This document shows positions 17,626-46,693 of a stretch of DNA of 64,000 bases, one piece after another (the first letter of the stretch is position 1; each line of letters starts with the position of its first letter). This stretch comes from Dactylorhiza incarnata. Taxonomy: Eukaryota > Streptophyta > Magnoliopsida > Asparagales > Orchidaceae. The notes beneath the pieces are model-generated. The model was given only the letters and a program-made list of their open reading frames with translations, had not been told where the DNA came from and did no database searches. Location of the stretch: the NCBI GenBank assembly GCA_033032865.1, contig JAWHQI010000064.1, positions 9,114,001 through 9,178,000 on the forward strand. Reading direction: 5' to 3'. A program made the position numbers and the translations under genes.

Positions 17626-17700
17626 TGATCAAGTCAAGTAAAACCATGAAGACATGAAGATTACAAAAATTCAGAGCTTTTTCTGAAAACTTCAGGCATG

Positions 17701-18032: not shown

Positions 18033-18045
18033 TATATATATATAA
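18033..18045 (+). promoter_or_regulatory. TATA-like box upstream of the env-like gene of element B
   Basis: TATATATATATAAG lies about 94 bp after the TCTCGAGA array and about 165 bp before the env-like ATG. The array-then-TATA layout mimics the LTR promoter. It could also be a simple AT repeat. Confidence 0.45.
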
Positions 18046-18202
18046 GAAATCGAAAACTTGATGTTCACGAAATCAATTTCCGAGTTCTCCCCGACCTTTC
18101 GACTTTCTCTCGAGCGGCGACGGTTAGCGACAGGTCTCAATGCTCTCGGTGGCTCTCGATACTTCATCTTCTCCATTCGACAGTTCTCCATATCTTGCTT
18201 CA

Positions 18203-20509: not shown

Positions 20510-20718
20510 AGGATATTGCTGATGCTGTCAAGACATATTCTGTTTTAGTTCTGATTTTGTTGAACATCAAGTCTTCTTAACAATTCAATTTAGACATATA
20601 TATATATAATTGTTGATTTGATGTTTTCTACTTATTCATTTTCATATCTTTGTGTAGTGTAGCATATTTGTTCTATATTGTTGTAATTCAACTTAGTATA
20701 TAGGGTTCTGACTTCTAC

Positions 20719-20732
20719 AAATAGGGGGAGAT
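20719..20732 (+). other. Polypurine tract of element B
   Basis: AAATAGGGGGAGAT directly before the 3' LTR. The stretch 20510-20718 is AT-rich without a gene. Confidence 0.85.
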
Positions 20733-23058: not shown

Positions 23059-23063
23059 CTTGA

Positions 23064-23346
23064 CATATGTCATGTCCTGTTCAGACAACTGGAGGGGTTT
23101 GTACATAGATCATAGAATGGTATTCTGAGAAATTACAGATTTTTCAGCCAGATCAAACCATTTGGACATTTGTTTGTTGAGTATTTCAGTGTTTTCCTTT
23201 ATTTCCTTGACCTCAGACATGACTTCAGCTTTCACATTTTTGATGGACTGATCCATATATTCCCTTACTGAGGTAACTGATTTATCTAGATTAGTTTGCA
23301 TGGAGGTGAGATGAGATTGAAGCAGAAGGTTTATGGCACTGATAAG
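23064..23346 (-). pseudogene. env-like gene of element A, middle segment
   Basis: This short strip of A lies between elements G and C. On the minus strand it encodes a coiled-coil-like stretch (ENTEILNKQMSKWFDL) matching the element D protein around 45640 (LLQMTRWFEM). A TGA at 23110-23112 interrupts it. Skipping the inserts and one copy of each target duplication, the frame is continuous with 34352 upstream and 3109 downstream. Confidence 0.85.
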
Positions 23347-23496
23347 TGTTGGAGCATGCGTTCCGCACTCGTCCGATTTGAGAATAACAAATCCCGAATG
23401 TATTTGATCCTATTTTGATTAATGATGTGTAGATAACAGGTGCAAGAATAACATGTTTGCAATTGGAGCAAAATACCGATTTTCCAGAAATTGGAG

Positions 23497-23696
23497 CTAT
23501 CGGATTTCCAACAGCAGTACCGGATTTCCGACAGCGCATGATTACTTCCGTTCTCCGATCTCTACTCAACGTTTTAGAGCTATCGGATTTCCGACAGCAG
23601 TAACGGATTTCAGACAGTGCACGATCTTCCCGTAACTCTACGACGTGCAGCAGTTACGCAAGCTAACAGATATCCGATAGTGCTACCGGATATCCG
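23497..23696 (+). repeat. U3 palindrome array of element C (CGGATATCCGA / GCTATCGGATTTCCGACAGC)
   Basis: About seven copies of CGGAT-(A/T)(T/A)-TCCGA-type inverted motifs, usually flanked by GCTATCGG or GACAGC. CGGATATCCG is a perfect palindrome (23687-23696). The last copy is about 135 bp before the TATA box. Confidence 0.85.
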
Positions 23697-23829
23697 ACAG
23701 CCCACGTCTCAACCATGACTCAATCGTGATCGCCACTCTCCGCAAAAATGTCGAATACATGGGACACGTGGCACCTCTGGAGCTATCAGATTTTGGCGAT
23801 AGCTAGCTAACAGATGGCGTTATCTATCT

Positions 23830-23841
23830 TTTATACAAAAG
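23830..23841 (+). promoter_or_regulatory. TATA-type box of element C LTR
   Basis: TTTTATACAAAAGG follows the array in both LTRs (33545 region in the 3' copy). This is a modest TATA match. Confidence 0.55.
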
Positions 23842-24618
23842 GGCTCAGAACTTCGTTTAATTCAGGCTTTCAGATCTCCAAGTCCTTTCCTGAGTGCATA
23901 CGAACCAGAGAGCTCCAGAACCTCATCAACTCCCATTTGTGCTTAGAAGGTTTGAAATTGAAGACGAGATCGGACGCGCTTCTACATCAACGATCATCTT
24001 GAGGCTTCAACCTTCCTTTCAGAGATCTGAATTTCTAGGGAGTTCTTCACTTGATTTTGTATTTTCATTTATATACATTTCACTTTGTATTGGTAGGGAA
24101 ATCGTCTCCTTGTGCGTGACGTCTAAGTCCTTGCATGGCTTAGGGGAAAATCGCTTCCTTGTGCGGAGCGTCCAAGTCCTTGCGTGGCTTGGTAGGAAAT
24201 TGTGGCCTTGTGTGCTACGTCTAGATCTTGGGAAGATCTAGAGGATAGGCTTGGGCTTGGTCTAGGGAGAGACAAGCGATAGCCTTCCAATCCATAGGAG
24301 AAGGATTGGTAAACTCAAATTGTAGAAATTTTATTATCAAACTTGTGCCTTGATCTAAAGCATTGTTAAGATCACTTTTATTGTATGTCATTTTCTTAAT
24401 TAATAAAATTATGACTTTCTTCTAATTGCGAATTTTATAGTTTAATTTTTAACTTAAAAATTTGTGTTTGAATTAATTTAAAAATTTCATAGTTTGAAAA
24501 TTTTTATAAGTGAATTTTAGAAAAGCAAAATTTGTTTTAAAAATTCTTAAGTAAAAAATCATAATTTAAAAAGGCCCTTATTCACCCCCCCTCTAAGGGC
24601 GCCACAAGATCCAACACG

Positions 24619-24628
24619 TGGTATCGGA
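24619..24628 (+). other. Primer binding site of element C
   Basis: TGGTATCGGA, 2 bases after the LTR, a decayed match to the initiator-Met primer site. Confidence 0.75.
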
Positions 24629-24665
24629 AGGAGGTTACTCCAAAACGGTTTTACCACCGGGAGTA

Positions 24666-26758
24666 ATGGCGCACAACGATCATGCGTTCGATGAGGGGCA
24701 AGGAATTAGTAGGCCACCACTTTTTACGGGCACAGGCTATAACTATTGGAAAACCCGAATGCGGTGTTTTCTAATAGCTCTCGACATAGAAGTTTGGAAT
24801 ATGGTCGAGATATGTTATACTTCCCCAACAATTGTTGTAGGAGATGTAATTATGGACAAACCCAAAGACAAGTGGGATGACAATGATAAATTAAAATGTA
24901 AGAACAATGCAAAAGCCATGAATGCTTTATTTTGCACACTAGATCGCACTGAATTTAATAGAGTTTGTGCTTGTGATACTGCATTTGAAATTTGGAATCT
25001 TTTAGAAATTAATCATGAAGGTACTTCTCAGGTAAAGGATTCAAAGCTATTTCAACTGGAGCCAGAGCTCGAATGATTCAAAATGGAGGTGGATGATGAA
25101 ATTGATACAATGTACACACGATTCACTAAAATCGTGAACGATTCAAAGGTGATGGGTAAGGTTTTCTCCAATGGAGATTTAGTAAGGAAAATCTTAAGAT
25201 CACTTCCCCCAAAGTTCAATCCTAAAGTGACTGCAATTTCTTAGTCACATGATCTTAAGACCTTACAATTGGAGAGCCTCATTGGGAATCTAAAAACCCA
25301 TGAAGTGAAGTTGATGATTCAAAGCCAAGAGTACAATTTGGAGCCCAAAAAGAAGAGCTTGGCGTTGAAATCTAAAAGGGAAATTGAAAGTGAGACTGAA
25401 GAAAGTGAGGAAGATGAAGAAGGACTGTTTGTGAGGAACTTTAAGAAGTTTATGAGAAATCCTGAGAGGAGAAACTCATTTAGAAAATTTTTCAAAAAGA
25501 AGGATTTTTCCTACAACAAAGGCAAAGGAAAAATGGATGATGAAGAAGAACGTCCGCTACCAGAATGCTATCATTGCAACAAGATTGGACATATAAGAAG
25601 CAAGTGCCCAAAATATCTGAGAGAGCAGAAAGATAAGAGGCACGATAAGAAGTTCAAAAAGAAGGTTCTGAAGGCGGAGACTTGGGATGACACAACTTCT
25701 GAAGGCTCAAGTGAAGCGAGCGATGAAGATAAAGAAGAAGCAAATGTATGCTTGATGGGGAAAGAAAATGCGTCATCTGACGACGATAGCAGTGTCCAAA
25801 GCGACACTGAGGTAACTCCTCCATCTTATGATGATTTATATTCTGAATTTATGAAAACTTGTAAATTTTTGGATAAAAGCCTAAAGGAAATCGATTTTTT
25901 AAAATGTGAAAATAAAGATCTTTTGAAAGTAAATAAAAAGTTATCAAATGAGTTGAAATCTATTGGGAAAGAGAAGGTAATTTGTCAAAAGTGTGATCAC
26001 TCTTCGACAAGGATAAAAGAACATGAAAACACTATTTCTAAGTCCGATCAAAAAATTGATCAACTTCTAAAAGAGAAAAAGGACTTAGAAAAGGTTGTCA
26101 AAACTTCTCATTCTCAATTAGAGAATTACAAGAAAAAATTGCAAATCGATGTGGCATGATAGTAAAAGAAAATTCAATTTTAAAGTCCAAAGTAAATGAA
26201 TTGAACATGGCAATTGGAAAATTTGGTGTTGGGAAAAAATCTCTAGATATGATTTTAGGCAACCAATGCCATGGGTCAGCAAAATTTGCACTAGGATATG
26301 TTTCTGGAAGCTCTGGAAGCTATCGGAAAATTCCGGCAGCTGCTGTCGCCAGCGACAGCTGCTGTCGCCGCGACAGCTGCTGTCGCCGCGACAGCTGCTG
26401 TCGCCGCGACAGCTGCTGTCGCCGCGACAGCTGCTGTCGCCGCGACAGCTGCTGTCGCCGCGACAGCTGCTGTCGCCGCGACAGCTCCAGGTTCAGAAAA
26501 CCACTTTTTCAAAATAAAATTTTTTCTAAGTCCACACATAAAGATGTTTCCTCCAGCAAGAGTCCAGCGAAACCATTAAAGAATGTTTCCTCACTATTTA
26601 TTGCATGTGCCAAATGTCATCGATTTGGTCACATCTCGGACTCATGCTGGAAGAAAGGAAAAGTTAACGTTCAACAAATCTGGGTACCTAAGGCGTCCAC
26701 CTATACCATGGGAGGGACCACTTGGGTAACCAGATCTTTACTCTCATCATCTTTGTAG
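24666..26758 (+). pseudogene. gag of element C, two stops and a frameshift
   Basis: ATG at 24666 (MAHNDHAFDEG). Copia gag domain with YNYWKTRMRCFL, then a CCHC knuckle (CYHCNKIGHIRSKC) near 25567, an acidic linker, a coiled coil, the DSCCRR repeat (26337-26485) and a second knuckle (CAKCHRFGHISDSC) near 26610. Stops are TGA at 25074-25076 and TAG at 25242-25244. A frameshift sits near 26155. The frame ends at TAG 26756-26758, and pol continues in the same frame right after it, so pol expression would need readthrough or splicing. Confidence 0.88.
26337..26485 (+). repeat. In-frame 18-bp tandem repeat in gag of element C (DSCCRR x7)
   Basis: About seven exact copies of CGACAGCTGCTGTCGCCG. Each unit is nearly palindromic (GACAGC...GCTGTC) and encodes DSCCRR in the gag frame. 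The unit shares the GACAGC half site with the LTR array of the same element. The repeat lies between the coiled coil and the second knuckle. Perfect identity between units suggests recent expansion. Confidence 0.92.
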
Positions 26759-29700
26759 GTGTGCGTGCAGGCTAAGAACAAGGAAGACGTGTGGTATTTG
26801 GACTCTGGCTGTTCAAAACACATGACGGGCGATAAATCAAAGTTCCTAATCCTGAAGATGAAAAAAGGAGGAACAGTGACCTTTGGAGATAATGGCAAGG
26901 GTAAAGTCAAAGGCATTGGAGTAGTAGGTAACGAAGAGTTTAAAATTTCAAATGTTTTATATGTTAAAGGTTTGAAACATAATCTAATCTCTATTAGTCA
27001 ACTATGTGATAAAAATCTAAATGTTTTATTTGACTCTAGCTCAAACCTTTGCAAAATTATTGATTCCAAAACAAATGAAATTGTACTTACTGCACCAAGA
27101 ATAAACAATATCTATACAATAACTTTTCATGATTTATCTCATTCTACACTTAAATGTTTTATCTTAAAGAATGATGAACTTGAATTATGGCATAGGAGAC
27201 TAGGACATTCTAGTGCTAAACTCATAGTAAAGCTTTCTAAAAATAAAATAATAAAAGGTTTACCAAATTTGAAGGGAAAGCTTTCTTCATTATGTTCACC
27301 ATGCCAAAAAGGAAAGTTTACAAAATCATCTTTTAAAAGCAAAAATGTTATTTCTACTACTAGACCTTTACAATTATTACATATGGACTTGTTTGGTCCA
27401 ATTACTACACAAAGTCTAGGAGGTAGAAAATATACGTTTGTTATTATTGATGATTATTCTAGATTTTATTGGACATTGTTTTTAAATTCAAAATCTAATG
27501 CTTTTGATGAATTTGTAAAACTAATTTCACGTATTCAAAATGAACTTGATTTAAAAGTAAAATGCATTAGATCAGATCATGGAGGAGAGTTTGATAATGA
27601 AAAATTTATTTCATATTGTAACGAATTTGGGATAAAACACAAATTTTCCGCTCCTCGCACACCACAACAAATTGGTGTAGTGGAGAGGAAAAATAGAACA
27701 CTTCAAGAATTAGCACGTACTATGCTTTGTGAATTTAAATTGCCAAAATATTCTTGGGCCGAAGCCGTTAGTACTGCATGCTATATTATTAATCGTGTCA
27801 TGATTTGTCCTACATTACAATTAACTCCTTATGAAATTTATTTTCAAAGAAAACCAAATGTATCTTACTTTAAAGTTTTTGGTTGTAAATGCTTTATTTT
27901 GAATACAAAAGATAACTTAGGTAAATTTGATGAAAAATGTGATGAAAGAATTTTCATTGGTTATTCTTTAACTAGCAAGGCCTATAGAGTTTATAATAAA
28001 TGTACTAAAGTAGTTGAAGAAACTATTCATGTAAAATTTGATGAAAACATTTCTTGTGTAGAAAATACTAAAGTTGCAGGTAATGAGAAAAATGAAGAAG
28101 ATGTGGAACAAAATCTGAGGAAAAATGATGATGATGATGAAGAAAAAGTAGAGAAAGAAGACGAAAAAGATGGTGAAGAAGAAGAAGAACAAGGATATGT
28201 ACCTCCAACCGAGCTAAGGTTCTCAAAAGATCATCCACAAGAATTTGTTATTGGAGAACCATCAAGTGGGGTACGTACACGTTCTAGTTTACATGAAAGT
28301 TTTTCAAATTTATGTTTTGTCTCTAATATAGAACCAAAAGATGTTGCCACCGCTTTAAATGATGAATCTTGGTTTTTAGATATGAATGAAGAACTTAACC
28401 AATTTGAAAGAAATAAAGATTGGAACCTTGTTGATAGACCTAGTGATCATCCAGTGGTAGGAGTCAAATGGGTTTTCAAAAATAAATTAGATAGTGACTC
28501 TAGGGTCACTAGAAACAAAGCTAGGCTTGTAGCGAAAGGATATAATCAAATTGAAGGGGTAGATTTTGATGAAACATTTGCACCCGTAGCACGATTGGAA
28601 GCAGTTAGATTTTTTGTTGCATTTGCTAGTAATAAAAGATTCAAATTGTTGCAAATGGATATTAAAACTGCGTTTTTAAACGGGTTGATTAAAGAAGAAG
28701 TTTATGTTGAACAACCCCCAGGATTTATGAATGAAAAATTTCATAATCGCGTATATAGATTGCTAAAAGCTTTGTATGGTTTAAAACAAGCACCACGTGC
28801 ATGGTATGATAGATTGACTTTATATTTATTACAAAATGGTTTTAAAATGGGTGGTGTTGATTGTACACTCTTCATTAAGCAAGTTGATGATAATTTAATT
28901 GTTGTACAAATTTATGTTGATGATATTATTTTTGGAGCCACTAATGAAAAGTTGTGCAATTATGTTGTAAAAATGATGGAAAGTGAATTTGAGATGAGTA
29001 TGGTAGGAGAATTAAAATATTTCTTAGGATTTCAAACTGTTGAAAAACATAATAGAGTTTTTATTAACCAATCAAAATATATTCATGATGTTTTAAAACG
29101 ATTTGGATTTGAAAATCTCAAACAAGCAAATACTCCTATGAGTGTATCTTTAAAATTAGGAAAAGATGAAAATGGAATATCTATAGATCAAACTTTATAT
29201 AGAGGCATGATAGGTTCACTTTTATATTTGACTGCATCTAGATCAGATATTATGTTTTCAGTTTGTTTATGTGCTAGATTTCAAGCTAATCCCAAAGAAT
29301 CTCATTTAAAAGCGGTTAAAAGAATCTTTAGATATTTAATTGGCACATCTAAACTTGGTTTGTGGTATCCACACAGTGATGATTTTACTTTATTTGGTTA
29401 TTCGGATTCCGATTATGCCGGTTGTTCACAAGATAGGAAAAGCACTAGTGCACTTGTCATTTTTTAGGCCCTTCACTTATCTCTTGGTCGAGTAGGAAAC
29501 AGAATTCTGTTGCCCTCTCAACCACCGAGGCCGAATATATCGCACTTGGTAGTTGTTGTGCACAAGCTCTTTGGATGAAACAAACATTAGAAAATTTTAA
29601 TATTAAACAACAAACTATTGAATTATGATGTGATAATAAAAGTGCAATTGATTTAACGTACAAACCGGTCCATCATTCAAGGTCTAAACACATTGATGTG

Positions 29701-29859
29701 AGACATCATTTTATTACAGATCATATTAAAAATAACCACATTAAAATTTCATTTATAGGCACGGATAATCAACTAGCGGATATATTCACTAAACCGTTAC
29801 CGGATTCCCGTTTTTCTATGCTTAGGCTAGAATTGGGAATCCTAGACATTTTACAATGA
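26759..29859 (+). pseudogene. pol of element C (protease, integrase, RT, RNase H)
   Basis: Nearly intact pol. Protease [14 protein letters not shown] at about 26790. Integrase zinc region ([11 protein letters not shown] ... CSPCQKGKF) and DDE core ([28 protein letters not shown]). An acidic linker (residues about 450-480) precedes RT with [23 protein letters not shown] and YVDDIIFGA, then RNase H ([15 protein letters not shown]). The frame breaks near 29448 by loss of one base and again at a TGA 29626-29628. The C-terminal [13 protein letters not shown] and [11 protein letters not shown] motifs follow, to a stop at 29857-29859. Confidence 0.92.
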
Positions 29860-30278
29860 TTATATCAATGCTTATAACCTATAAAATTAAAACATCACAA
29901 TAGCTATACAATTTAAAAAGAAAAACTAAATCTTAAACACGATCAAAACATAGACATTCACCAACATAAATCTTGTCCAAATATTAAAAATTATTACAGA
30001 ATTTTAATAAAAGAGTACTTAAAATGTCTCATAAAAGAAGTTCACAAAATTAAGGAGAGATCTGGACTGGGAAGCTATCGGATGGCGACAGTAGGATATC
30101 GGATGGCGTTAGCTCCCAGAAGTCATTTTCAATCTGAATCCTCCTCATTTTGACTGCCTGCTCCACTGCTTTCTGGAAGATCATAAATTAGTCTCCTTAC
30201 CACTGCCTTCTTACGTCGAGCCTGACTAACTGATTGGCGACGCGGCTCCTCCTCCATAGGCACTTCCCATTCAGCGGT

Positions 30279-31292
30279 TTAAGCAGCCGTAGGTTTTAAT
30301 TTTAGTCCCTTAACAAGGAACTTCATGAACTTCTGCATCCGTGTCCGATCCTTCTTCACCTCCACTTTGTGTTCCTCAAAAGACTTTCTATGCTCTTGAA
30401 AATCATCAATGTGTCTATCCAACTTTGTTTGAAAAGAGTCGAGTACCTCCCGCATAGACCCTCCACGTGAAATAGGAGGCTCTCTCATCTCCGTAGTAGG
30501 CGGCTTCCGTTGATTTTTCTTACTCTTTATACCCGTCGTTTGATATATATCCGGGACACAATCTCCAACATAAAAGTCTTGATCTATCCATACATATTTC
30601 TTGAATAGAATACACTGGATAATCGCACCCAAAGGGAGGGAATGTGCCTTTTTCCACTCAGGATTTTTGAGGCGGAATGTATAGCGAATCATAGACAAAA
30701 GAAGATCGGCCACATCAAATAATTCTTTCTCCACTATATAATAAGTCACAAGACTAAGTTGAGCCATAATACTATGAGTATCACCAGACTTCAACATAAT
30801 CGTGTGCCTTAGTATGTCTTGAACAAGACAAGCATCGTCTGACAATGTCGTCACAGTGGTTATAAGGTTCTTTGTAGAATTTCCATGCAAAGACATGTTC
30901 ATTAAGGTCCAATCTCTCTAGTCTATAGTTCTCAACTATGTCCAAAACATTCCTACTTCCCACTATTCCAAATTCACTCTTTAAATCAAAGGGAGTGATC
31001 TCCACATATTGGCCTTGGATTTTCGATCTAACTCCTCCATTCAAATCAGTATATGTAGGGTCCTCAAGATGATTATAAAACTCTCGTACTAAAAATGAGG
31101 AGAACAAGTCTTGGATAATGACAGAAATTATACCTGCATCGGCAAGCATAAGATACTCACGTCGTGACGCGGGAGATCAAATTCCGCAAATTTAGAAATT
31201 CCAATTTGGGCTTTCTTTATGCCCGGATAACTTTGGTAGGAAGAATAAGCATCTCCTGAATCACTCCTTCGGGATCTCCAACTGGATGCCAT
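30279..31292 (-). pseudogene. Antisense extra ORF of element C (plant transposon-protein-like)
   Basis: On the strand opposite to pol, an ATG at 31292 opens a serine- and arginine-rich start. The coding pieces 31149-30781 and 30902-30279 follow in other frames, so at least two frame breaks exist. VREFYNHLEDPTY and LPLGAIIQCILF resemble the putative plant transposon protein type carried by some plant LTR elements, and the C-terminal part is charged and coiled-coil-like. A GTGAGT at 31160-31155 could be a splice donor explaining one break, but I found no convincing acceptor that restores frame. The family assignment is from pattern only. Confidence 0.55.
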
Positions 31293-31327
31293 ATCTGTAT
31301 AAGAAATAAGAAATTTTTAGAAACTAG

Positions 31328-31369
31328 AACTGTCGGATATCCGATACGCTTCTGTCGGATATCCGATAG
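31328..31369 (-). repeat. CGGATATCCGA palindromes next to the antisense ORF of element C
   Basis: Two copies of GTCGGATATCCGATA, the same palindrome as the C LTR, sit just upstream of the antisense ORF start. Related copies lie at 31788-31828 and, downstream of the ORF, at 30073-30112. The rest of 29860-33142 is AT-rich and otherwise empty. Confidence 0.75.
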
Positions 31370-32894
31370 CTAAAAATCATACTTCCGAAAATTCATCTCA
31401 CAAACATTCTTACTATCACAAATTCAAAACTTTGGTGAAAAACACTATTCATCATCTTCTTCCTATAAAAAAATTCAAAGTTCTAATTTTTATTCTCTAT
31501 ATCAACATCACAAGATCTAAACCCTCTTTTGAACACCAAGTCTAAAATGTCTAGATCTCCTAAAACTTCTATATTTTTTCTTCACAAAAACTCAATGAAA
31601 ACCAAGAGGGATATCAAAATCACGAAAAATTTGAAAATTTTTAAACAAAACTTGAAAAATCAAAGTTCCTCACCTTAAATCTAAAGTTTTTCGGTGACCT
31701 GGAGCTCTAAATCTCGGAAAATTTCCTAAAAGTGAAGTGAGGCGTCAGTGGAAAGACGAAATGATTCTTGTTATCTTTTTAGAGGTGTCGGATGGCGACA
31801 TATAGCTGTCGGATATCTGACAGCTCCCAAAAATAAACTTCTGTTCTTCTCTAGCTTTTTCATTCCCTCTTTCTATTAATATTCATATGAGAATTTTTTA
31901 ATCTTGCATAAATGATTCTTCATGTGTTATTTTTCGTAAAAATAGCTTAACACATGATTATGATGGTTCAATCTTAAGTTATCATTGTAATGACACTTTC
32001 ATATAGGAATTAAGAATTGTTTTCGCATGCCTCTAAGTATAAGAAATCTTTTATCTATGACAATGAGCAATCACAACCACTTACTTTGCTAATACATGTT
32101 AATAAAATTTATTTTATACATACATCATGATTGATCGAACATAACAAAATACATTTCATAAATGCTACCTTCAACTTTGCTACTTTGCACTTATTCACAT
32201 TTATACCATTTTTGCATGCAAGTGAATTCGGAGATCCTTTACATATATAAATATTCAAAAAAAAAAAACAAATTCAAATGCAAAACATATATTTTGCCAA
32301 AATTTTTGAAAGAAATAAATTAAAAAAATTGAAAAGGATCCTTCACCAAGCACTACTTAGCCTCCTGATAAGTCTTAATGAGCATTGTGAGGTTAAGCAC
32401 CTTGGAAAGAATTGTAAAGTGTCTTGTTATGCAAAAACAAAATGGTCCTCTTATGTATACTTGCAAAGTTTCTATAAGTTCATAAGTTTGGCTTTATGTA
32501 TATTTATGTTATGTTTAACAATTCCATGATCATGTATATTTTAAATATATTCATATGTATTCTTTCTCAAAGTATCACTACTACACTTCATTGTTATTTA
32601 TAAAATTTCTTCTTATGAGAATTGGACCGAAACGATTCAATATTCTATCTGCTAATGTGTCTTTCTCTGATAATTGAACTTGAAACTCATAATGGTTAAG
32701 TATATTTGCTTTATGTATATTGATAACAGATAACTAGAATGCTTGGCCTCATCTCTAAGGTTTCCTATCTCGATATCATATCACTTACAAAGCTTCCGCT
32801 AGTGTACTCCAACTTTCCCTATATTCTTTCTTATTTTCTACCATATCTCTATGATACTCCTTCCTCGTCTCTATTCATTACTTTTGATAATATC

Positions 32895-33042
32895 AAAGGG
32901 GGAGAAGATAATAAGAAATCACTTAAATCACTTAAAATACTTAATTAATACACGGAGCATACATGTAGGGGGAGTTTATATGTCGGGGGAGAATATTTTT
33001 AGAAGGAGCTAATATTAAGGGGGAGATCATATTAAGGGGGAG
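32895..33042 (+). other. Extra polypurine-tract-like sites in element C
   Basis: Five GGGGGAG runs (about 32895, 32966, 32982, 33017 and 33034) precede the real polypurine tract, two of them followed by ATCAT. They could act as extra plus-strand primers or be simple duplication of the tract. Confidence 0.5.
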
Positions 33043-33142
33043 ATCATGGAGATCATATGTTCACACTTGTAGACACATGATATACTTTTCAATATCTCTA
33101 TAGGATTTATTTGATTTCTTTTTATAAGGATTTGTTATTATC

Positions 33143-33155
33143 AAAAGGGGGAGAT
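33143..33155 (+). other. Polypurine tract of element C
   Basis: AAAAGGGGGAGAT directly before the 3' LTR start TGTTGGAGC. Confidence 0.85.
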
Positions 33156-34351
33156 TGTTGGAGCATGCGTTCCGCACTCGTCCGATTTGAGAATAACAAA
33201 TCCGGAATGTATTTGATCCTATTTTTGATTAATGGTGTGCAGATAACAGGTGCAAGAATAACATGTTTGCAATTGGAGCAAAATACCGATTTTCCATAAA
33301 TTGATTTTCGACAGCAGTAACGGATTTCCGACAGTGCACGATCTTCCCGTAACTCTACGACGTGCAGCAGTTACGCAAGCTAACGGATATCCGATAGTGA
33401 TACCGGATATCCGACAGCCCACGTCTCAACCACGACTCAATCGCGATCGCCACTCTCCACAAAAATGCCGAATACATGGGACACGTGGCACCTCTGGAGC
33501 TATCAGATTTTGGCGATAGCTAGCTAATGGATGGCGTTATCTATCTTTTATACAAAAGGGCTCAGAACTTCGTTTAATTCAGGATTTCAGATCTCCAAGT
33601 CCTTTCCTGAGTGCATACGAACCAGAGAGCTCCAGAACCTCATCAACTCCCATTTGTGCTTAGAAGGTTTGAAATTGAAGACGAGATCGGACGCGCCTCT
33701 ATATTAATGATCATCTCGAGGCTTCAACCTTCCTTTCAGAGATCTGAATTTCTAGGGAGTTCTTCATTTGATTTTGTATTTTCATTTATATACATTTCAC
33801 TTTGTATTGGTAGGGAAATCGTCTCCTTGTGTGTGACGTTTAAGTCCTTGCGTGGCTTAGGGGAAAATTGCTTCCTTGTGCGGAGCGTCCAAATCCTTGC
33901 GTGGCTTGGTAGGAAATCCTGGCCTTGCGTGCTACATCTAGATCTTGGGAAGATCTAGAGGATAGGCTTGGGCTTGGTCTAGGGAGAGACAAGCGATAGC
34001 CTTCCAATCCATAGGAGAAGGATTGGTAAACTCAAATTGTAGAAATTTTATTATCAAACGTGTGCCTTGATCTAAAGCATTATTAAGATCACTTTTATTG
34101 TATGTCATTTTCTTAATTAATAAAATTATGACTTTCTTCTAATTGCAAATTTTATTGTTTAATTTTTAACTTAAAAATTTGTGTTTGAATTAATTTAAAA
34201 CTTTCGTAGTTTGAAAATTTTTATAAGTGATTTTTAGAAAAGCAAAATTTGTTTTAAAAATTCTTAAGTAAAAAATCATAATTTAAAAAGGCCCTTATTC
34301 ACCCCCCCCCCCCCCCCCCCCCCCCCTCTAAGGGCGCCACAAGATCCAACA
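33156..34351 (+). repeat. 3' LTR of element C
   Basis: 1196 bp. Compared with the 5' LTR it lacks about 110 bp of the palindrome array (equivalent to roughly 23485-23597). It has a C run of 25 (34302-34326) where the 5' LTR has 7. About 35 other substitutions, mostly transitions, are seen by eye. Confidence 0.92.
34302..34326 (+). repeat. Expanded poly-C tract in 3' LTR of element C
   Basis: 25 consecutive C in a motif that is 6-7 C in related LTRs. Slippage or a base-calling artefact are both possible. Confidence 0.85.
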
Positions 34352-34532
34352 AGAAGAGCCTCATTGGGTGAGGTGGAGGAAGAGGCTTGTTGAATGTTGA
34401 TAACAGCAGTTGGGGCATCATCCTGCTCATCTTCAGTGTCAGCATCTTGATGTTCACTCAGATTGACATCACTAGCATTATCATCCTCCTCCCCCTCAGA
34501 GAGAGCATTCTTTTCTGTTGAGTTCAGGAATG

Positions 34533-34599
34533 CTGGGACAATGAGTTGGAGTTAGATTGAACTACTTAGAGGTTCTAAGGATAATAATGTAAGATTTAC
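34533..34599 (-). other. Intron 3 of env-like gene, element A (67 nt, phase 1)
   Basis: Donor CTAG|GTAAATC, acceptor TTGTCCCAG|CATTCC, branch-like TCTAAC about 26 nt before the acceptor. It is AT-rich. Retention gives a stop within the intron. Same length as intron 2. Confidence 0.75.
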
Positions 34600-34683
34600 C
34601 TAGAACTTCATCTTTCTCTACAGGAGGAGCATTCTGCACCTCCTCCTCAGATAAATCAACTTGAATGGATGAATCTAGGAATT

Positions 34684-34750
34684 CTAGAACAAGAATTGTA
34701 AAGTTAGATTTTATGATTTTGAATGTTTAGGCTGGGTTTTTAGGGATTAC
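34684..34750 (-). other. Intron 2 of env-like gene, element A (67 nt, phase 1)
   Basis: Donor ATAG|GTAATCC, acceptor CTTGTTCTAG|AATTCC, branch-like TCTAAC about 25 nt before the acceptor. Retention gives a stop four codons in. Confidence 0.75.
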
Positions 34751-35032
34751 CTATAACCTGATCTTTATTAGCTGATGGCTCTTGTGGCTGCTCCCCCTCA
34801 GATGGGGCATCAGATGAACCTTGTGAAGGTAATGACCACAGGGCTGGTGCATTTTCAGGAATGTTTCTTATTCTTTCTTCAAGACTGAAGATAATTGTGT
34901 CAATCTAACCTTGTAAATTTTGAGGTGATGGTCTTGTGTTCACATCATCATCATTGATTTATGCAATATCAATGGGTGATGGTTCTTGTTGATATTCACC
35001 CTCAGATGAAGCACAGACCAGTTCTTGAGGAT

Positions 35033-35119
35033 CTGGGGTCCACATTAATTAAATGTCATATTTGACTAACTATTGTTATTAGATATGATTAATGAGTTAG
35101 GAGGAGTTGAATTAGTTAC
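35033..35119 (-). other. Intron 1 of env-like gene, element A (87 nt, phase 1)
   Basis: Donor TTTTG|GTAACT, acceptor GGACCCCAG|ATCC. Retention gives a stop two codons past the donor. Element D has an intron at the matching position (46152-46221). Confidence 0.72.
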
Positions 35120-36180
35120 CAAAAGTTATGACTTTGTCCAGCTGCAGTGGATGGACAGGTTCAGTTGGCTGGTCATTTGGTGTAGCCTCTTTGTCAAGAA
35201 TGTTGTGTGACCTAATGTCAGCACCAACATCTTCATCTTTTTTTGAATGATCAAACTCAGAATTGGACATGATCAGCCTTGTTTTCTTAGAAGATGATGG
35301 GGTTGTCTTCTCTTTTCTTTTAGTTTCAGAGGGCTGACTCATAAGCAATACCCTGATGAATCTTTCTAAAGTCTTGATGTCCATTCTCTTGAGATAGTGA
35401 AGATTTGCTCCTTTGGATGTGTTGAACTTTTCAGGGTGCGTTTGCAGGAGGTATAATGAGAGAATTCTTCCCATATTGGGTGCCTGAAGGCATTCCTTAA
35501 TTCTTTGAAAGATGACCTCTCCCCAAGAGGTTTTCTTTTTCAGAATTATTCTTGTCATGAGGTCAAACATGTACTGTGAGATTGTATCATGAGACCCTGG
35601 TTTGCAAAGAATGGCTTTTCCCACAATATCTGATAAAAGTTTTCCCTTTTGGTTGAAAATTTTCCTCTTCAATGGGCCAATTTTGGCATCATTGTACTTA
35701 GTCCATTTTAGAGCCTTTTTCTTGTCTTTTTCAGAGATGTCATCCTCCTCACTTGGACCGCAGGATGGAAGATGTTATGCTTTTTGTAGTTTTGTTGGGG
35801 TTATCTTGATTCTATCTTCTCCAATATTTGACTTGAGGGAGCATTTGGAGGTGGACAACTTGAAATTGCCAAACCATTCCAGAACTTCAGTTCTGAGAAA
35901 GGCACAGGGTTCAGATAGTAGAAATTCCAGGCCTTGGTCTTCTAGGAGTTGAATCACTCCCTTAATTTCATCTGGAGCATGGGCAAACCCATGCCTTACT
36001 ATCTCATATCCATCAAGAAGATCTTTAGAGCTTTTGGGAGCCATTGCAGTGGTGGAGGAATGCGCTGGGATGGAAGAGTAGGTGATTCATCTTGGCGGCT
36101 GGAAGAGAAGAGTCGTGTGCTTTTCACTAATCAGATTGGCTCTTATAATTGTAAGTGTAAATGGAACTACATCATAAAGC

Positions 36181-36631: not shown

Positions 36632-39600
36632 CTATTCTACATTTAACATTCCTAGTTCAATCTTGAAGGCATTAAACTTGGCCTCATCCAATGGCTTAGT
36701 GAATATATCAGCCACTTGACTGTCAGTGGGGACAAATTCAAGGCAGATATCTTGAGATTCTACATGTTCTCTTATAAAATGATTTCTTATTTCTATATGC
36801 TTAGTCCTGCTGTGAGAGACAGGATTCTTATCAATAGAGATAGCACTGGATGAGTCACAATAAAGAGGAGAGTTACTTACCTTGTGGTTGTAGTCCTCTA
36901 GCTGGTGTTGAATCCACAATACATGTGCACAACAACTCCCTGCAACACTGTATTCAGACTCAGCATTAGAGATAGCCACACTTGTCTGCTTTTTGCTGCT
37001 CCATGATATCAACCTTCTTCCTAGGAATTGACAGGTGCCACTTGTGCTTTTCCTGTCTTCTTTGTAGCCTGCAAAATCTGCATCTGAAAATCCAGTTAGT
37101 TCAAAATCATTGTTCTTAGGGTACCAAAGGCCAAGTTATAGGCTGCCTTTAAGGTATCTCAGAATCCTCTTTCCAGCTGAGTAGTGAGATTCCTTAGGAC
37201 ATGTCTGGTACCTAGCACACACACATATAACATACATAATATCTGGTCTACTAGCAGTTAAATATAACAGTGATCCAATGATGCACCTATACATGGATTC
37301 ATCAAAGGCCTTGCCCTTCTCATCCTTGTCCAGGGAAATGTTAGACCCCATGGGAGTTTTCATGGTGAAAGCTGATTGAATCCCAAACTTCTTGATAAGC
37401 TCCCTAGTGTACTTGGTCTGAGAAATGAATATACCTTCATCAGACTATTTTACTTGGAGGCCTAAAAAGTACTTTAGCTCTCCCATACTGCTCATCTCAA
37501 ACTCCCACTGCATTAGGTTGGCGAACATTTTGCAGAGGTTGTCATCAGTAGACCCAAATATTATGTCATCAACATATATTTGGACTAGGAGACACTTGCC
37601 CCTAGTTTCCCTAAGAAATAATGTGATATCTATCTTTCCCCTCAATAACTTGTTCTTAATGAGAAAGCTAGACAATGTCTCATACCAAGCCCTGGGGGCT
37701 TGCTTAAGACCATAAAGAGCTTTCCTAAGTATGTAAAAATGACTAGAGAGGGTAGGATGTACAAAACCTGATGGTTGCTCAACATATACCTCTTCCTTCA
37801 AGTCACCATTGAGGAAAGCTGATTTGACATCCATTTGATACACTTTGAACCCCTTATGGGCAGCATAGGCAAGGAATAGCCTAATTGCTTCCAACCTTGC
37901 AACTGGGGCAAAGGTTTGATCAAAGTCTATCCCTTCTTCCTGTCTATACCCCTTGGCCACCAGCCTTGCCTTGTTCTTTATGATTGTGCCATTTTCATCT
38001 AACTTGTTCCTATAAATCCATTTGGTACCTATGATATTGTGTCCTTGAGGTTTTGACACCAATTTCCATACATTGCATCTCTTGAATTGTAGAAGTTCTT
38101 CTTGCATAGCTTGAATCCAAAAGGTGTCTTGGTTGGCTTCTTCAAATTTCTTGGGCTCCATTTGTGATAGGAAGCTCAAGAATAGGGCTTCATTATGAGC
38201 CATGCTTCTGGTTAATACACCTTGATTCTGATCTCCAATTATTTGTTCTCTTGGATGATCCCTTAGATGTCTTACAGCTGTAGGCAGTATGTTCTCAGCT
38301 TGCTGTGCTGTTTCTGCTGGTTCAGCAGTGTCTTCATCAGCATTGACTTCTTCCTCTTCAGGGATGGCAGCATCAGAATAAGCTTTGTTGCTGCTGGGTG
38401 TGTCTTGTATAGACATCCTTTCCAAATCCTGTTCATTTCCTGCCAAGACAGAAGATCTAGACCAGCCCTTATATATTAGGCTGGTCTCATCAAATACTAC
38501 ATGCAAAGACTCCTCTACAACATGAGTTTTCTTGTTATACACTCTATAAGCTCTACTATGTGAGCTATAGCCAACAAGAACACCCACATTGCATTTCTCT
38601 GCAAACTTTGTTAATTGAGATTTTCCATTGTTTAAAATGTAGCATTTGGAGCCAAAGATTCTAAAGTATGTAATTGTAGGTTGTTTGCCTTTCAGAATCT
38701 CATATGGAGTTATTCCATGAACCTTATTGATGGAAGCTCTATTGAGAACATGACATGCAGTATTGACTACCTCATCCCAGAAGTATTCTGGGAGTGAGGA
38801 GTCACTAAGCAGTGTTCTCCCAGCTTCTATCAAAGTCCTATTCCTCCTCTCAGCCACACCATTTTGTTATGGAGTCCTTGGGGAGGAGAACTCTTGGGTG
38901 ATACCATATTCTTGATAAAACCTTGTCATAGGTTCAGATTTAAAATCTGTGCCATGGTCAGTTCTAGTCCTGACCACAACACATTGCAAGTCATTCTGAA
39001 TTGCTTTGACATGAGTTATAAAGATATTTAGAGTATCATACTTCTTCTTTAGGAAGAATACCCATGGATATTTTGAGTGATCATCAACAATCACCAAAGT
39101 ATACAACTTCCCACCTAGGCTCTGAATTGGCAAAGGACCAAACAAGTCCATATGCAAGAGATAAAGACATCTTTCAGTGTCTTTGGAGCCAATACTTTTA
39201 AAAGTGGCCCTTGTTTGCTTACCCATTTGGCAAGCATGACAGGGACCATTTTTAATACATTTTATATTAGGACTATTCCTAACAAGGTTTTTAGAGAATA
39301 GTCTATACATTGTCTTGTAGTTAATGTGAGCAAGTCTCTTGTGCCATTGAACACAAAGGGACTCATTCTCATTAGCTACTAGACAAACAGATGTAATAGA
39401 ATTACTACATATAAAGTCTAAGCAATAAACATTCTCACTCCTAGTGCCTGAGAGAATGGTCTCTAAGTCTTTAGACTTTTTAATCAAGCACTTGTCATTA
39501 TGGAATTCAATGACATATCCTAGATCACATAGTTGACTTATGCTTACTAGGTTGTGTTGCAACCCTTCAACATAAGCTACCCTTGTAATTGAGACTATGC

Positions 39601-39781
39601 CATTGGAGATCATACCATACCCTTTGGAGATTCCCTTTTCTGACCCCCCAAAGATAACTTTGGTTCCATTCTTCACAGCCTTGTAGTCCTGTAGAAGATT
39701 TTTGGTTCCTGTCATGTGCCTTGAGCACCCACTGTCCAAGTACCAAATTTGGTTGAGGCTGGTACTTAAACTATCCTGCAA
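36632..39781 (-). pseudogene. pol of element A (protease, integrase, RT, RNase H), three stops
   Basis: A single frame from 39781 to 36632. Protease [14 protein letters not shown]. Integrase zinc region (WHKRLAHINYKTM ... CHACQMGKQ) and core (MDLFGPLPI, VDDHSKYPW, RTDHGTDFKS). RT with [26 protein letters not shown] and YVDDIIFGS. RNase H ends SRTKHIEIRNHF and [11 protein letters not shown]. Three nonsense codons (about 38866-38858, 37447-37445 and 37138-37136) and no frameshift. At least two are Gln-to-stop. It is the closest relative of element B pol in this window. Confidence 0.92.
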
Positions 39782-39789
39782 AAAGGAGT

Positions 39790-40928
39790 TTAGTTATCCT
39801 TAGGAGCCCAAATAGCTTTGGGTCCTAGGTACTTGTTAGCATGATGAAATGACCTTACACTAGCTGCACCCTTTGCAGGAAGGCTCATCTTTGCACATGA
39901 CACATTAGGATTGTGCCTACAGTCTATGGCAAACTGTCCTACTTTACCACAGCACCAACATTCATGAATGTTGTATCTCCTCTTTTGAACATTTCTAGAG
40001 GGGTGTGCAGCACAGTCCACATGTTCAGGAGGAGAGACAACAACTTTTCTCTTGTTTCTTTCAGCAAGGATTTGGCTAAAAGTCAATCTGTGGACAGTCT
40101 TAGTGGTCTTTGTATTAATGACATCAACTTTCTTTGGCTTTTGGGCAATGCAAGTTTTGATGGCATTAGACACTGAGCAATTAGACATGTCCACTGATTT
40201 GACAGCAGTCATGTTCTTGGCTGAATCAACCTTAAAAGGGCTTGCTTTCTTATTCTTGAATGAAGGGGCTGATGTACCAAATACAAATGGTCCAGGTTGG
40301 GCCATTTGAATTTCCTCACGGGGAGCCTTCATAGCACTCAATCCCATTCCATTTCTTCCACTATGGGAAGGAGTGTTTTCCTTCCTATAGGTACTTCCAT
40401 TCTTCCAGTGACCATACATGCTTTCATGGTCATACCTGTTGGAAGGGAGTAATACCTTTTGAAAGGTGGTTTGAGGCATAGCCTTACCCCTGCTCTTTTC
40501 TCCACTCCCTTCTCCTGCTTACATTTTATTGAATCCTAGTCCTCTCCAATTGGATTGAGAAGAGAAGGAGTCAATAATAGGGAGCACAGATTTTGGCTTG
40601 GAGAATTAAGCCACTAGGCTTCTTTCTTTCACAAGCTTCTCCTCAAGATCCTTGATGACCTTGTTCTTCAGGGATATGGTGCTCATATGGGTGATAGTTA
40701 TCCCCTTCAGATGGCTAATTTCCCTATACATCTGACTCATCTTGGTAGAAGATTCAGTGCATCTTGTTTTTCCATCTTAAGGGAGTCAATCTCTTGGGCT
40801 TGCCTCTTGGCTAGCTTTTCGCTCCTTTTCAGAGCTTCCAAAAGAGCATCATACTTGTCAATCAATTGATTGACATCTACCTCAGCTTCTGAATCACTTC
40901 CACTAATTGATGAAGGTGCTCCAAATTC
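39790..40928 (-). pseudogene. gag of element A, C-terminal part only
   Basis: The frame 40479-39790 corresponds to the last 230 residues of element B gag, including a knuckle CWCCGKVGQFAIDC in which the histidine is replaced by Q, and the same GPKAIWAPK end. Upstream to 40928 is a degenerate coiled-coil part with several stops. The N-terminal gag domain and the primer site are missing. The break is at the filler segment 40929-41010. Confidence 0.82.
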
Positions 40929-44618: not shown

Positions 44619-46693
44619 CTAAGATGGACCCTGGGAAGAGCTTTCTCCATCTGTAGACTTTCTTTTCCTAGCTTCAGCAGCAGCCTTGATCTTCTCCTTC
44701 ACTTTGAAGTACAGAAGTGGCTTGGGAAGATATCTTGTGGGAATCCTTAAAGGAGTTTCCCTTCTTACCAGGTTTTCTTTGAGAATCCTTTCCCTTAAAG
44801 ATTCCCTTTCAAGGTGTTTGATCCACTCAGCAGCTGAATAGACATGGTCAATGTCCTTCATTGGATTGCCATGTCTCACCCAGGTATTGACAACAATTGT
44901 GTCCAACTCCAGATTGTCATCTTCATGGAGTGGATCCTCTAATCTTTCCATTCTTTTCTGGGCCATATACTCTTTAGCAATTTGAATGCCCTCTGCCCTT
45001 CTCCTCTTTGCTTCTCTCTCATCAGCAATCAGATTTGATTGACTTTGGAAGTCAAAGTCTTCATTTCTGCTAGGGTTCAAGATTGGAAGATTCAAAGCAA
45101 TTCTTGTTCCTTACAGCACTTTTAAGCTTGAGTCCCACTGATTATCAGTAACCTTTCTGACCATGGTAAGGATATTTTCTTGAATAGCACTGGAAGCATT
45201 GTTGACCACTTCCACCACTTGCTTGTTGGCTTCTTCTTGATTGGAGAGTATCAGTTTATGGGAGGACTCCATGTTGTTATACAGCTGTATGTGAGCTCCT
45301 TTCAGCTTAGCATGTAGATTGAGAATCTTCTCCTCCCCTTCTTTGTTATGTTCCACTATCTTCTTCTCTATTTCAGAATGTTGATTCAATATGGATTGGG
45401 AGAGAGTTTGAAAGGTGTTGTCCACATCATCTAAAATGTATTCCTTTGCCTTGTCAATGTGGGACTTGACTTGGCTGCTTGATGTGTTGACCACTTGTGC
45501 CATTCTGGTAATAGTTTTTTCCCAGACATTTTCATTTTTAGAGCTGATTCTTTACATATGTTATGTCCTTTGTGGAATCCCCTTGATGGTCTGCAATATT
45601 CTTCAGAACTGTGTGCTGGGCAGCAACAGTATTTTTGTCCATTTCAAACCATCTTGTCATCTGCAGAAGGATATGATCTGATGCAGTTTTGACATCATTA
45701 ACGTGGGCATTGAGCTCAGTTCTCACTTCAGCCACTCTTGACTCCATTCTTTGCTCACTGGCCTGGATCTCCTGAGTCAATGCTGCTCTTGTTGTATACA
45801 ATTCATTCCTTATCTGGGCAGAGACAAAATGGACCTTTTCAGCAACAATCTCTTTCATAGACAACATCTGACCCTCAATCATTGTTTGTATTGAGTTTAA
45901 CAGGTCAGATGTGTCCAGAGCTGCAACTGCCCTTTCCTGGGGTAATTCCTTTTCAACCATCTCTTCAGCTCCACTTTGAGCATTAGCCCTCTCATCATCA
46001 GGGATCCACTCCCCCTCAGATGGGGCATTAGGTGATACCAATTCCTATTGATGTTCTCCCTCACTAGCATACCCACTTCCTCCTTCATAGGCTGGGCTAT
46101 TATCCCCCTCACTTGGGGCATCCATAGGAGGAGAATTTTGTCTAAGGTCACCTGAAAAATGATTGATGAGTTAGACACTTAGACTATACTATTGATAGAA
46201 AAGAGAGGCCTAACCTAAATCCTAATTTATCAGGGATAGGTGAATTGGGAAATTCATCTTCAGCTTGAGGAACAGCTGGATCAGCATTCATCTGAGTTGG
46301 CTCAGGATTGGGCTCAACTCTTCCGTGGGGCTCCTCATCTCTTCTTGTCCTGGGGACATCTTCATTATCTATGTTCATTGGGTTGCTGCCAGATCTAAGA
46401 TCAGACCCATAAATGTCCTCATTTTCAGACCCATCTGACTTTGAGGGTGAATCTAATTTCTGCTGAGATGACTCTTTCTTCTTTTCCTTTGCCACAGATG
46501 GCTGGCTCATAGGGAGCACTCTGGAGAATCTATCCAGAGTCTTAATGTCCATTCTTTTGAGATAATGGATATTTGACCCCTTGGAGTTTGCAAAGGACTC
46601 TGAATGACTATTCTGTAGGTACAGAGATAGTATTCTTCCCATATTGGGGGCTTGTAGAGATTCCTTTATCCTTTGAAAAATAACTTCTCCCCA
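44619..46693 (-). pseudogene. env-like gene of element D with one intron
   Basis: The minus-strand reading begins abruptly at 46693 inside the conserved SWGEVIFQRIKE region (the N-terminus is lost), runs through a KRMDIKTLDRFSRV block and acidic linker to a phase-1 intron at 46221-46152, then SEGE-rich and coiled-coil regions, and ends with AAEWIKHLERESLRER and RYLPKPLLYF. Breaks: TAG near 46030, a frameshift around 45530, and TAA at 45111-45113. The C-terminal 160 residues are intact. It is homologous to the env-like genes of A and, more weakly, B. Function unknown. Confidence 0.82.
46152..46221 (-). other. Probable intron of env-like gene, element D (70 nt, mutated donor)
   Basis: Acceptor CATTTTTCAG|GTGACC, branch-like TCTAAC about 24 nt upstream. 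The donor site now reads TTAG|GATTTA, one base from GT. Removing it joins two open frames at phase 1, as in A. Confidence 0.6.

What the first reader, a model, noticed from the sequence alone, without database searches (positions are those of the whole stretch)
34533..35119. Three spliceosomal-type introns inside the env-like gene of a copia retrotransposon
Minus strand, element A. The env-like frame stops right after GTAACT (35119), but removing 87 nt (35119-35033), 67 nt (34750-34684) and 67 nt (34599-34533) gives one continuous frame through four exons. Every intron is phase 1, GT...AG and AT-rich, and each contains an in-frame stop if retained. Introns 2 and 3 have TCTAAC 25-26 nt before the AG. 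The only stops left in the spliced frame are of the C-to-T type. An RNA element must keep introns out of spliceosome reach in its genomic RNA, so this implies regulated splicing, as in complex retroviruses. I do not know of this for SIRE-type elements.
Basis: partly seen in the sequence, partly recalled or inferred. Interest (0 to 1): 0.85.

Follow-up and report, generated by a model that had tools for sequence, protein, structure and literature searches.

The report
Intron-bearing third gene of plant retrotransposon
An old plant jumping element of the Sirevirus (copia) kind carries what look like three short splice-type introns in its extra downstream gene, two of them copies of one another, so its genetic RNA probably had to escape splicing in order to jump.

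Summary
In detail: coordinates, phase 1, GT..AG ends and a stop in each retained intron are confirmed. Frame rescue by plain GT/AG excision is no better than chance (304 of 400 shuffles as good); with GTAA donors and YAG acceptors it is rare (4 of 400; 0 of 400 at 60-100 nt). Two results weigh more. (1) Introns 2 and 3 with their exon edges are paralogous copies 151 nt apart, homologous across both junctions. (2) A diverged relative in the window (E) has one U-rich, stop-bearing 70-nt gap at the like place, with CTAAC..TTTTTCAG, but a GA donor. A third relative (B) has no intron. Frameshifting cannot bridge any of the four gaps. The gene lies between pol and the 3' LTR of a Sirevirus-type element; no clear membrane segment was found, so 'env' describes position only. 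Splicing was not shown: no RNA and no outside homologue was reachable. Best reading: true short introns in an extra ORF, one amplified with its exon. New variant of a known kind.

The parts
35120..36044 (-). exon 1 of the extra (env-position) ORF of element A; one in-frame stop at 35777
   Evidence: 34% aa identical to B over 250 codons, 60% to E over 121 codons
35033..35119 (-). intron 1 (87 nt, phase 1, GTAACT..CCCCAG); weakest of the three: CTAAC lies 64 nt from its end
34751..35032 (-). exon 2 (282 nt); stops at 34961 and 34907; no Met; holds two SEGE-coding repeats
34684..34750 (-). intron 2 (67 nt, phase 1, GTAATC..GTTCTAG, branch A of CTAAC 20 nt from end)
34600..34683 (-). exon 3 (84 nt, no stop, no Met)
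34533..34599 (-). intron 3 (67 nt, phase 1, GTAAAT..GTCCCAG, branch A of CTAAC 19 nt from end)
34352..34532 (-). exon 4, first part, up to the insertion of element D
23059..23346 (-). exon 4, second part, between elements D and C (includes the CTTGA target duplication of C)
2175..3109 (-). exon 4, last part (one frame shift); gene end approximate
34791..34798 (-). AGGGGGAG (Sirevirus polypurine octamer) inside exon 2, coding part of SEGE
34640..34647 (-). octamer with one mismatch in exon 3, exactly 151 nt after the last
34489..34496 (-). AGGGGGAG in exon 4, exactly 151 nt further
36650..40479 (-). pol of element A (SH3-like domain, then RVT_2); bounds approximate
1777..1786 (-). terminal polypurine tract (AGGGAGAG, one mismatch) + AT of element A; 3' LTR starts TGTTGGG at 1776
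23347..34351 (+). element D, nested in exon 4 of A (LTRs 23347-24616 and 33156-34351; flanks ATAAG/AGAAG)
3110..23058 (+). element C (with B in its 3' LTR), nested in exon 4 of A; flanks CTTGA/CTTGA
46152..46221 (-). relative E: intron-like gap, 70 nt, 41% T, branch A of CTAAC 19 nt from the end, TTTTTCAG; first bases GA, not GT
44619..46699 (-). relative E: remains of the same ORF (its N part is missing, fused to another pol)
18140..19738 (+). relative B: 532-aa ORF of the same kind without introns

Best explanation
Element A is an old Sirevirus-type copia element whose sense ORF between pol and the 3' LTR is (or was, when active) a split gene with three short phase-1 spliceosomal introns. 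SHOWN from sequence: the exon/intron layout; continuation of the gene beyond two nested elements; paralogy of the intron 2 and intron 3 units; a diverged relative (E) with a gap at the like place; an intronless relative (B). INFERRED: the ORF protein is made from spliced RNA, while genomic RNA that is copied back to DNA escapes splicing, because the introns are short and splice leakily or because a separate RNA pool is packaged, as reported for BARE. INFERRED: exon 3 and one intron arose by a misaligned template switch during reverse transcription between two copies of the AGGGGGAG octamer. That would duplicate 151 nt (exon tail + intron + exon head) as one unit between two phase-1 introns. 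INFERRED: intronless ORFs such as B's either never had the intron or lost it when spliced RNA was reverse transcribed.
For: Layout and phases. GTAA occurs 4 times in the 1691-nt sense stretch 36044-34354 and 3 of the 4 are the donors; CTAAC occurs 3 times, once in each intron. Rescue with GTAA/YAG: 4 of 400 shuffles (60-150 nt), 0 of 400 (60-100 nt). Unit 2 against unit 3: local score 29 against 9.6 +- 1.3, maximum 18 of 1000 mononucleotide shuffles; in a global comparison 0 of 1000 dinucleotide shuffles as good; 13 of 16 exon-tail, 41 of 69 intron and 30 of 45 exon-head columns identical, with GTAA, TCTAAC and AG kept. Octamers at 34798, 34647 and 34496 are 151 and 151 nt apart. Each acceptor lies 31, 37, 37 or (E) 43 nt before an octamer-like purine run (2, 1, 0 and 1 mismatches). 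E gap: T 41% against 22-24% in the flanking exon; CTAAC once in 2.1 kb. At 4 of 4 gaps the upstream frame closes before the downstream frame opens, and A exons 2, 3 and the tested part of exon 4 hold no Met, against frameshift or restart. pN/pS below 1 on both sides of the gap (A/E exon 1: 95% range 0.23-0.44; exon 4 parts: ranges between 0.45 and 0.98).
Against: No RNA evidence. A and E are both dead copies. E lacks a GT donor and has another frame break at about 45540, so its gap could in part be decay. Intron sequences alone are weakly alike: shuffles as good were 15 of 1000 for A2/A3, 67 for A3/E1, 105 for A1/A3, 123 for A1/A2, 272 for A2/E1 and 506 for A1/E1. The whole E unit matches unit 3 (0 of 1000) but not unit 1 (169) or clearly unit 2 (60); in local alignment E's best matches to units 2 and 3 lie in the exon purine stretch, not in the intron, while that to unit 1 is a 16-nt stretch with CTAAC (15 of 1000). 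The number of CTAAC is what composition predicts (2.5 expected); only its placing is notable. Intron 1 has no well-placed CTAAC. The donors score 6, 6 and 7 of 9 against a recalled consensus, no better than eight other GTs among 55. The introns are only moderately richer in T (30-34%) than the exons (21-30%). pS is near saturation, some exon 4 comparisons include out-of-frame ends and their upper bounds approach 1, so constraint there is weakly shown. No homologue outside the window was found.
Confidence: 0.72

Rival explanations
1. The ORF really ends near 35112. What follows is a decayed, unexpressed or low-constraint stretch, and the 'introns' are AT-rich spacers that a reader can nearly always excise to reopen a frame.
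For: With plain GT/AG, 304 of 400 shuffles can be rescued as well. The copies are dead. The middle part of the protein is acidic and poorly conserved. E's donor is not GT. Constraint in exon 4 is weakly shown.
Against: Rescue with GTAA/YAG is rare (4 and 0 of 400). The coding signal resumes after the gap in both A and E and runs to a shared C-terminal part. Introns 2 and 3 diverged from one ancestor yet both keep donor, CTAAC and acceptor.
Confidence: 0.13
2. Two or more separate ORFs: a 5' ORF (exon 1) and a 3' ORF with its own start, not a spliced gene.
For: E has a Met at codon 9 of its second exon. Extra ORFs in sense and antisense are described in plant elements (PMC7264820, abstract and passages).
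Against: A exons 2, 3 and the first part of 4 contain no Met. Relative B runs from the shared N-terminal domain into a helical C-terminal part in one 532-aa frame, though B's C-terminal likeness to A and E is only borderline (best case score 53 against a shuffle maximum of 51 of 300; the four other comparisons lie within the shuffle range).
Confidence: 0.08
3. Host gene fragment with introns captured by the element at DNA level or from unspliced pre-mRNA, recently and in one lineage, with no role in the element.
For: The 2019 survey found the extra ORFs of SIRE elements to fall in 19 groups with little or no mutual similarity, so repeated capture is possible (PMC6317226, passages).
Against: A, B and E, with different LTRs, share the ORF at the same place before the 3' LTR, with the Sirevirus octamer inside the coding sequence of all three. 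So it is old in these elements, though an ancient capture remains possible.
Confidence: 0.05
4. Programmed ribosomal frameshifting or bypass across the gaps.
For: Frameshifting is common in retroelements (general knowledge).
Against: In 4 of 4 gaps the open frames do not overlap (separated by 63, 13, 10 and 13 nt).
Confidence: 0.02

Closest known systems
Sirevirus / SIRE lineage extra ORF downstream of pol (eORF-3'F, 'env-like')
   Same: Copia pol, sense ORF between pol and 3' LTR, octamer + AT/TG junction next to the 3' LTR (B and D exact, A and E one mismatch, against PMC2829016 passages).
   Different: Introns inside the ORF. The word 'intron' occurs 0 times in the Sirevirus motif paper (PMC2829016), the Sirevirus review (PMC3599292) and the extra-ORF review (PMC7264820), and 2 times in the LTR-element survey (PMC6317226), there for Ogre in the passages shown.
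BARE1 and EVADE (copia): small alternative intron making a Gag-only RNA
   Same: Intron in a copia element; unspliced and spliced RNA coexist (PMC3735527 passages; PMC12786077 passages).
   Different: Single intron near the gag/protease border whose removal cuts off pol. Here three introns in the last ORF, whose removal opens it.
Ogre (Ty3/gypsy): intron between the gag-protease and reverse transcriptase ORFs
   Same: Partial splicing joins reading frames (PMC6317226 passage).
   Different: Other superfamily, one intron, in the polyprotein.
Bagy-2 env subgenomic RNA (Ty3/gypsy)
   Same: Downstream ORF reached by splicing (told in PMC3735527 and PMC7264820 passages).
   Different: As told there, splicing yields a subgenomic env RNA; introns within the ORF are not mentioned. 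Original paper not seen.
Cer1 CERV of C. elegans
   Same: Env-position ORF without Env homology, made from a spliced mRNA (PMC10309623 abstract and passages).
   Different: Element of an animal; CERV has a shown role in genomic RNA export. No function is known here.

Membership tests
Sirevirus (SIRE lineage of Ty1/copia) | copia domain order with RVT_2 | tested here: met
   SH3_retrovirus then RVT_2 in A pol
Sirevirus (SIRE lineage of Ty1/copia) | AGGGGGAG octamer starting 10 bp before the 3' LTR, then AT/TG | tested here: met
   B exact (20723) and D exact (33146); A (1786) and E (44084) one mismatch in the octamer, AT/TG kept
Sirevirus (SIRE lineage of Ty1/copia) | several octamers clustered before the 3' LTR | tested here: inconclusive
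   E 3 exact after the ORF, D 5 exact including the terminal one; A none exact between its ORF and LTR
Sirevirus (SIRE lineage of Ty1/copia) | place in the reverse transcriptase tree | not tested
   no reference set of named plant elements was at hand
spliceosomal introns | GT..AG ends, branch-like motif, frame restored | tested here: met
   GT..AG and frame 3 of 3 in A; well-placed CTAAC 2 of 3; E fails the GT donor
spliceosomal introns | removed from RNA | not testable with these tools
   no RNA data
retroviral-type Env protein | membrane-spanning or signal segment | tested here: not met
   highest 19-residue hydropathy inside the right frames: 1.17 (B), 1.14 (A, near its C-terminal end), 0.75 (E, N part missing); 1.6 taken as threshold (recalled). 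A simple scale only: A ends with an 11-residue hydrophobic run (mean 2.46), and one window reaching 1.70 included the stop and residues beyond it
Transposase_32 (Pfam PF20167) | score above the curated cut-off | tested here: not met
   B 38.4 bits against 45; two A exon 1 pieces and the E exon 1 piece no match
CERV-like genomic RNA export factor | made from spliced RNA and needed for export of unspliced RNA | not testable with these tools
   only basic NLS-like clusters seen (E KRRR, RKRK; B KRHK, KRKR; A KKTR), weak

The most novel reading that the evidence does not exclude
In this Sirevirus lineage the polypurine octamer has a second life. Repeated inside the last ORF, it codes an acidic SEGE motif and marks the start of small exons (as a purine-rich splicing enhancer, and as the switch point at which reverse transcription duplicates intron-exon units). 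The split ORF encodes a soluble, nuclear, CERV-like regulator made only from spliced RNA that helps the unspliced genomic RNA leave the nucleus: a plant retroelement with splicing feedback and exon-number evolution.
Probability: 0.12. Interest if true: 0.82.

Novelty: new variant of a known kind. Interest (0 to 1): 0.55.

Why it matters
An intron in the sense strand of a retroelement is lost as soon as spliced RNA is copied back, so a multi-intron ORF implies a way to keep genomic RNA unspliced. Here an intron was also duplicated inside the element, which suggests that intron-bearing RNA served as template over more than one round. It gives a testable reason why the extra ORFs of SIRE elements look so heterogeneous in a survey (PMC6317226, passages): part of them may be split genes (inference). 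It also offers 0-, 1- and 3-intron relatives in one genome for studying intron gain and loss through reverse transcription.

Tried and rejected
Homologues outside the window: protein searches with part of A exon 1 (27 candidates) and with B (7994 candidates scored) gave none at E 0.001 or better. Scans of viral contigs with A exon 1, A pol and the E C-terminal ORF and of prokaryote genome contigs with A exon 1 gave pattern matches (2, 4, 13 and 27 stretches) but no confirmed relative. The own-genome search did not complete, so neither the species nor other copies could be examined. Structure: the model of B with 4 aligned sequences was poor (mean pLDDT 48, 60 residues at 90 or more) except a long C-terminal helix, so no fold search was made. 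Pfam: no match for A and E N-terminal pieces; coiled-coil-type matches of E's middle part are below their cut-offs. The chance test with plain GT/AG failed to support the finding, and comparison of intron sequences alone was weak. An alternative donor in E at 46214 was rejected by hand because the phase is wrong. My first hydropathy runs used wrong frames for some A pieces and were repeated.

Papers: 10 searches. No title, abstract opening or passage that I saw reports introns inside a SIRE extra ORF. Ten papers were opened, by outline or passages, none in full (PMC6317226, PMC1142308, PMC12786077, PMC3095359, PMC3735527, PMC2829016, PMC3599292, PMC10309623, PMC6696364, PMC7264820); of the 23 papers holding both 'sirevirus' and 'intron' only 2 were opened. 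Only openly licensed papers are held, so this is not proof of absence. A minimum intron length near 70 nt in plants is recalled; the paper (Goodall and Filipowicz 1990) was seen only as a reference title.

Full report
What was checked. The stretch 36044-34352 (minus strand) was read and translated exon by exon. Exons 2 (282 nt) and 3 (84 nt) are multiples of three. Upstream frames run into stops at 35114, 34742 and 34564 inside the introns. Three stops remain in the exon pieces examined: 35777, 34961 and 34907. The remark that these are of C-to-T type is empty, because every stop codon is.

Surroundings. Self-comparison shows nested elements. Element D (23347-34351, plus strand, LTR pieces 89-95% alike) sits in exon 4 of A with flanks ATAAG/AGAAG. 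Element C (3110-23058, flanks CTTGA/CTTGA; gypsy-type by RT_RNaseH and Tf2-1-like SH3 matches) sits further on and carries B (10622-22125, LTRs 99.3% alike) in its 3' LTR. A's ORF resumes at 23346-23059 and again from 3109 to about 2175, where it matches the C-terminal part of relative E. It is followed by AGGGAGAG-AT and the LTR start TGTTGGG at 1776. On A's 5' side the stretch most like this 3' LTR is 41324-41013 (91% over 314 nt); weaker matches (77-89%) at 44.1-42.8 kb probably belong to E's LTR; so A's 5' LTR is incomplete. The ORF thus lies in the usual place of the extra ORF of Sireviruses, between pol (40479 to about 36650) and the 3' LTR.

Chance. A script asked how often a chain of up to three excisions gives an open frame over 769 nt with at most two residual stops, the real value. 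With plain GT/AG and 60-150 nt, 304 of 400 dinucleotide shuffles did as well: not significant. With GTAA donors and YAG acceptors, 4 of 400 did (60-150 nt) and 0 of 400 (60-100 nt). The GTAA rule was set after seeing the donors, so this is suggestive only. In the 1691-nt sense stretch GTAA occurs 4 times and 3 of these are the donors; CTAAC occurs 3 times (2.5 expected from composition), once in each intron. By my own arithmetic the chance of all three CTAAC falling within the 221 intron nucleotides is about 0.002, not corrected for the introns' AT-richness. Against a recalled donor consensus the three donors score 6, 6 and 7 of 9; eight other GTs among 55 score 6 or 7.

Paralogy. The stretch exon 2 tail - intron 2 - exon 3 head (34766-34639) aligns with exon 3 tail - intron 3 - exon 4 head (34615-34488). 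The local score is 29, against 9.6 +- 1.3 and a maximum of 18 in 1000 mononucleotide shuffles; globally 0 of 1000 dinucleotide shuffles were as good. Identity is 13 of 16 columns in the exon tail, 41 of 69 in the intron and 30 of 45 in the exon head, and GTAA, TCTAAC and AG are kept. So the two introns and the exon between them come from a tandem duplication that crossed both splice junctions. Unit 1 is less clear: 3 of 1000 shuffles as good against unit 2 and 11 of 1000 against unit 3, but in local alignment only exon sequence matches unit 2, and unit 3 is matched no better than in 120 of 1000 shuffles. The Sirevirus octamer AGGGGGAG (PMC2829016, passages) occurs in the coding sequence at 34798, 34647 (one mismatch) and 34496, that is 151 and 151 nt apart, coding the SEGE motif. 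B has 3 exact octamers at 18924, 19347 and 19866, the first two in its 532-aa ORF and the third in the in-frame stretch after its stop; E has one exact copy in its ORF. The pol stretches of A and B searched have none exact. A misaligned template switch between octamers during reverse transcription would give this duplication; that step is inference.

Relatives. E (46699-44619) is 60% identical to A in exon 1 over 121 codons (pN/pS 95% range 0.23-0.44) and 22-43% in four comparisons of exon 4 parts (ranges between 0.45 and 0.98; some include out-of-frame ends; pS near saturation). Between its two coding parts lies a 70-nt stop-bearing gap (46221-46152) with 41% T against 22-24% in the flanking exon, the branch A of CTAAC 19 nt before its end, and TTTTTCAG. 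Its first bases are GA, so this copy could not splice there in the normal way. E is also fused on its 5' side to a pol only 30% identical to A's and has a further frame break at about 45540. The E unit is significantly like A's unit 3 (0 of 1000 shuffles) but not like unit 1 (169 of 1000) and only weakly like unit 2 (60 of 1000). B (18140-19738) shares the N-terminal domain (34% over 250 codons) and is one open frame without introns; its C-terminal likeness to A and E is borderline. So 0, 1 and 3 introns occur in relatives within one window.

Other ways to read it. Frameshifting is excluded for 4 of 4 gaps, because open frames do not overlap. Restart is unlikely in A, where exons 2, 3 and the tested part of exon 4 have no Met, but E has one. 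Decay without introns remains the main rival.

What the protein is. No piece has a clear membrane-like segment: at most 1.17 on a 19-residue hydropathy scale, though A ends with an 11-residue hydrophobic run. B matches Pfam Transposase_32 below its cut-off (38.4 against 45 bits); the A and E pieces tried do not. The model of B is poor except a long C-terminal helix. 'Env' is a name for the position only; the 2019 survey also calls an env-like role speculative (PMC6317226 passages).

How it may work. In BARE, replication is reported to use uncapped RNA that is not spliced, while another pool is spliced for Gag (PMC3735527 passages). Ogre is spliced in only a subset of transcripts (PMC6317226 passages). 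In Cer1 an env-position protein from a spliced mRNA is required to export the unspliced genomic RNA (PMC10309623 abstract and passages). By analogy the split ORF here would be expressed from spliced RNA and its introns kept because another RNA pool, or leaky splicing of short introns, supplies the genome. None of this was shown here.

Limits. No RNA data, no other copies, no species name: the own-genome search did not complete and no collection searched gave a homologue. In ten paper searches I saw no report of introns inside a SIRE extra ORF; only openly licensed papers are held and most listed papers were not opened.

Verdict. A real and well-built pattern, most likely true introns in a Sirevirus extra ORF: a new variant of the known theme of intron-bearing plant retroelements.

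Noticed in passing
window 48091-46700 (-) joined to 46699: Relative E is a chimera: a pol about 30% identical to A's runs straight into the middle of the Sirevirus-type ORF.
   Followed up: partly
window 30279-30902 and 30781-31149 (-): Two antisense ORFs (207 and 122 aa; the 207-aa one has no Pfam match, the other was not tested) between pol and 3' LTR of element D, like the antisense extra ORFs described in PMC7264820.
   Followed up: partly
window 18924, 19347, 19866 (+); 34798, 34496, 46016 (-): The Sirevirus polypurine octamer occurs inside the extra ORF of B, A and E but not exactly in the pol stretches of A or B.
   Followed up: yes
window 41324-40933 (-): 5' side of element A is rearranged: part of an LTR is followed directly by a piece 95% identical over 79 nt to the ORF's C-terminal part (2543-2466).
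   Followed up: partly
window 26337-26486 (+): 18-bp tandem repeat, 8.3 copies at 99%, inside the ORF 26156-26758 of element D.
   Followed up: no
window 34302-34326 and 62622-62656: Runs of 25 and 35 C; the first lies in element D's LTR.
   Followed up: no
window 55520-62230 (-): Young copia element: LTRs 99.8% alike and one open 1303-aa gag-pol frame.
   Followed up: no
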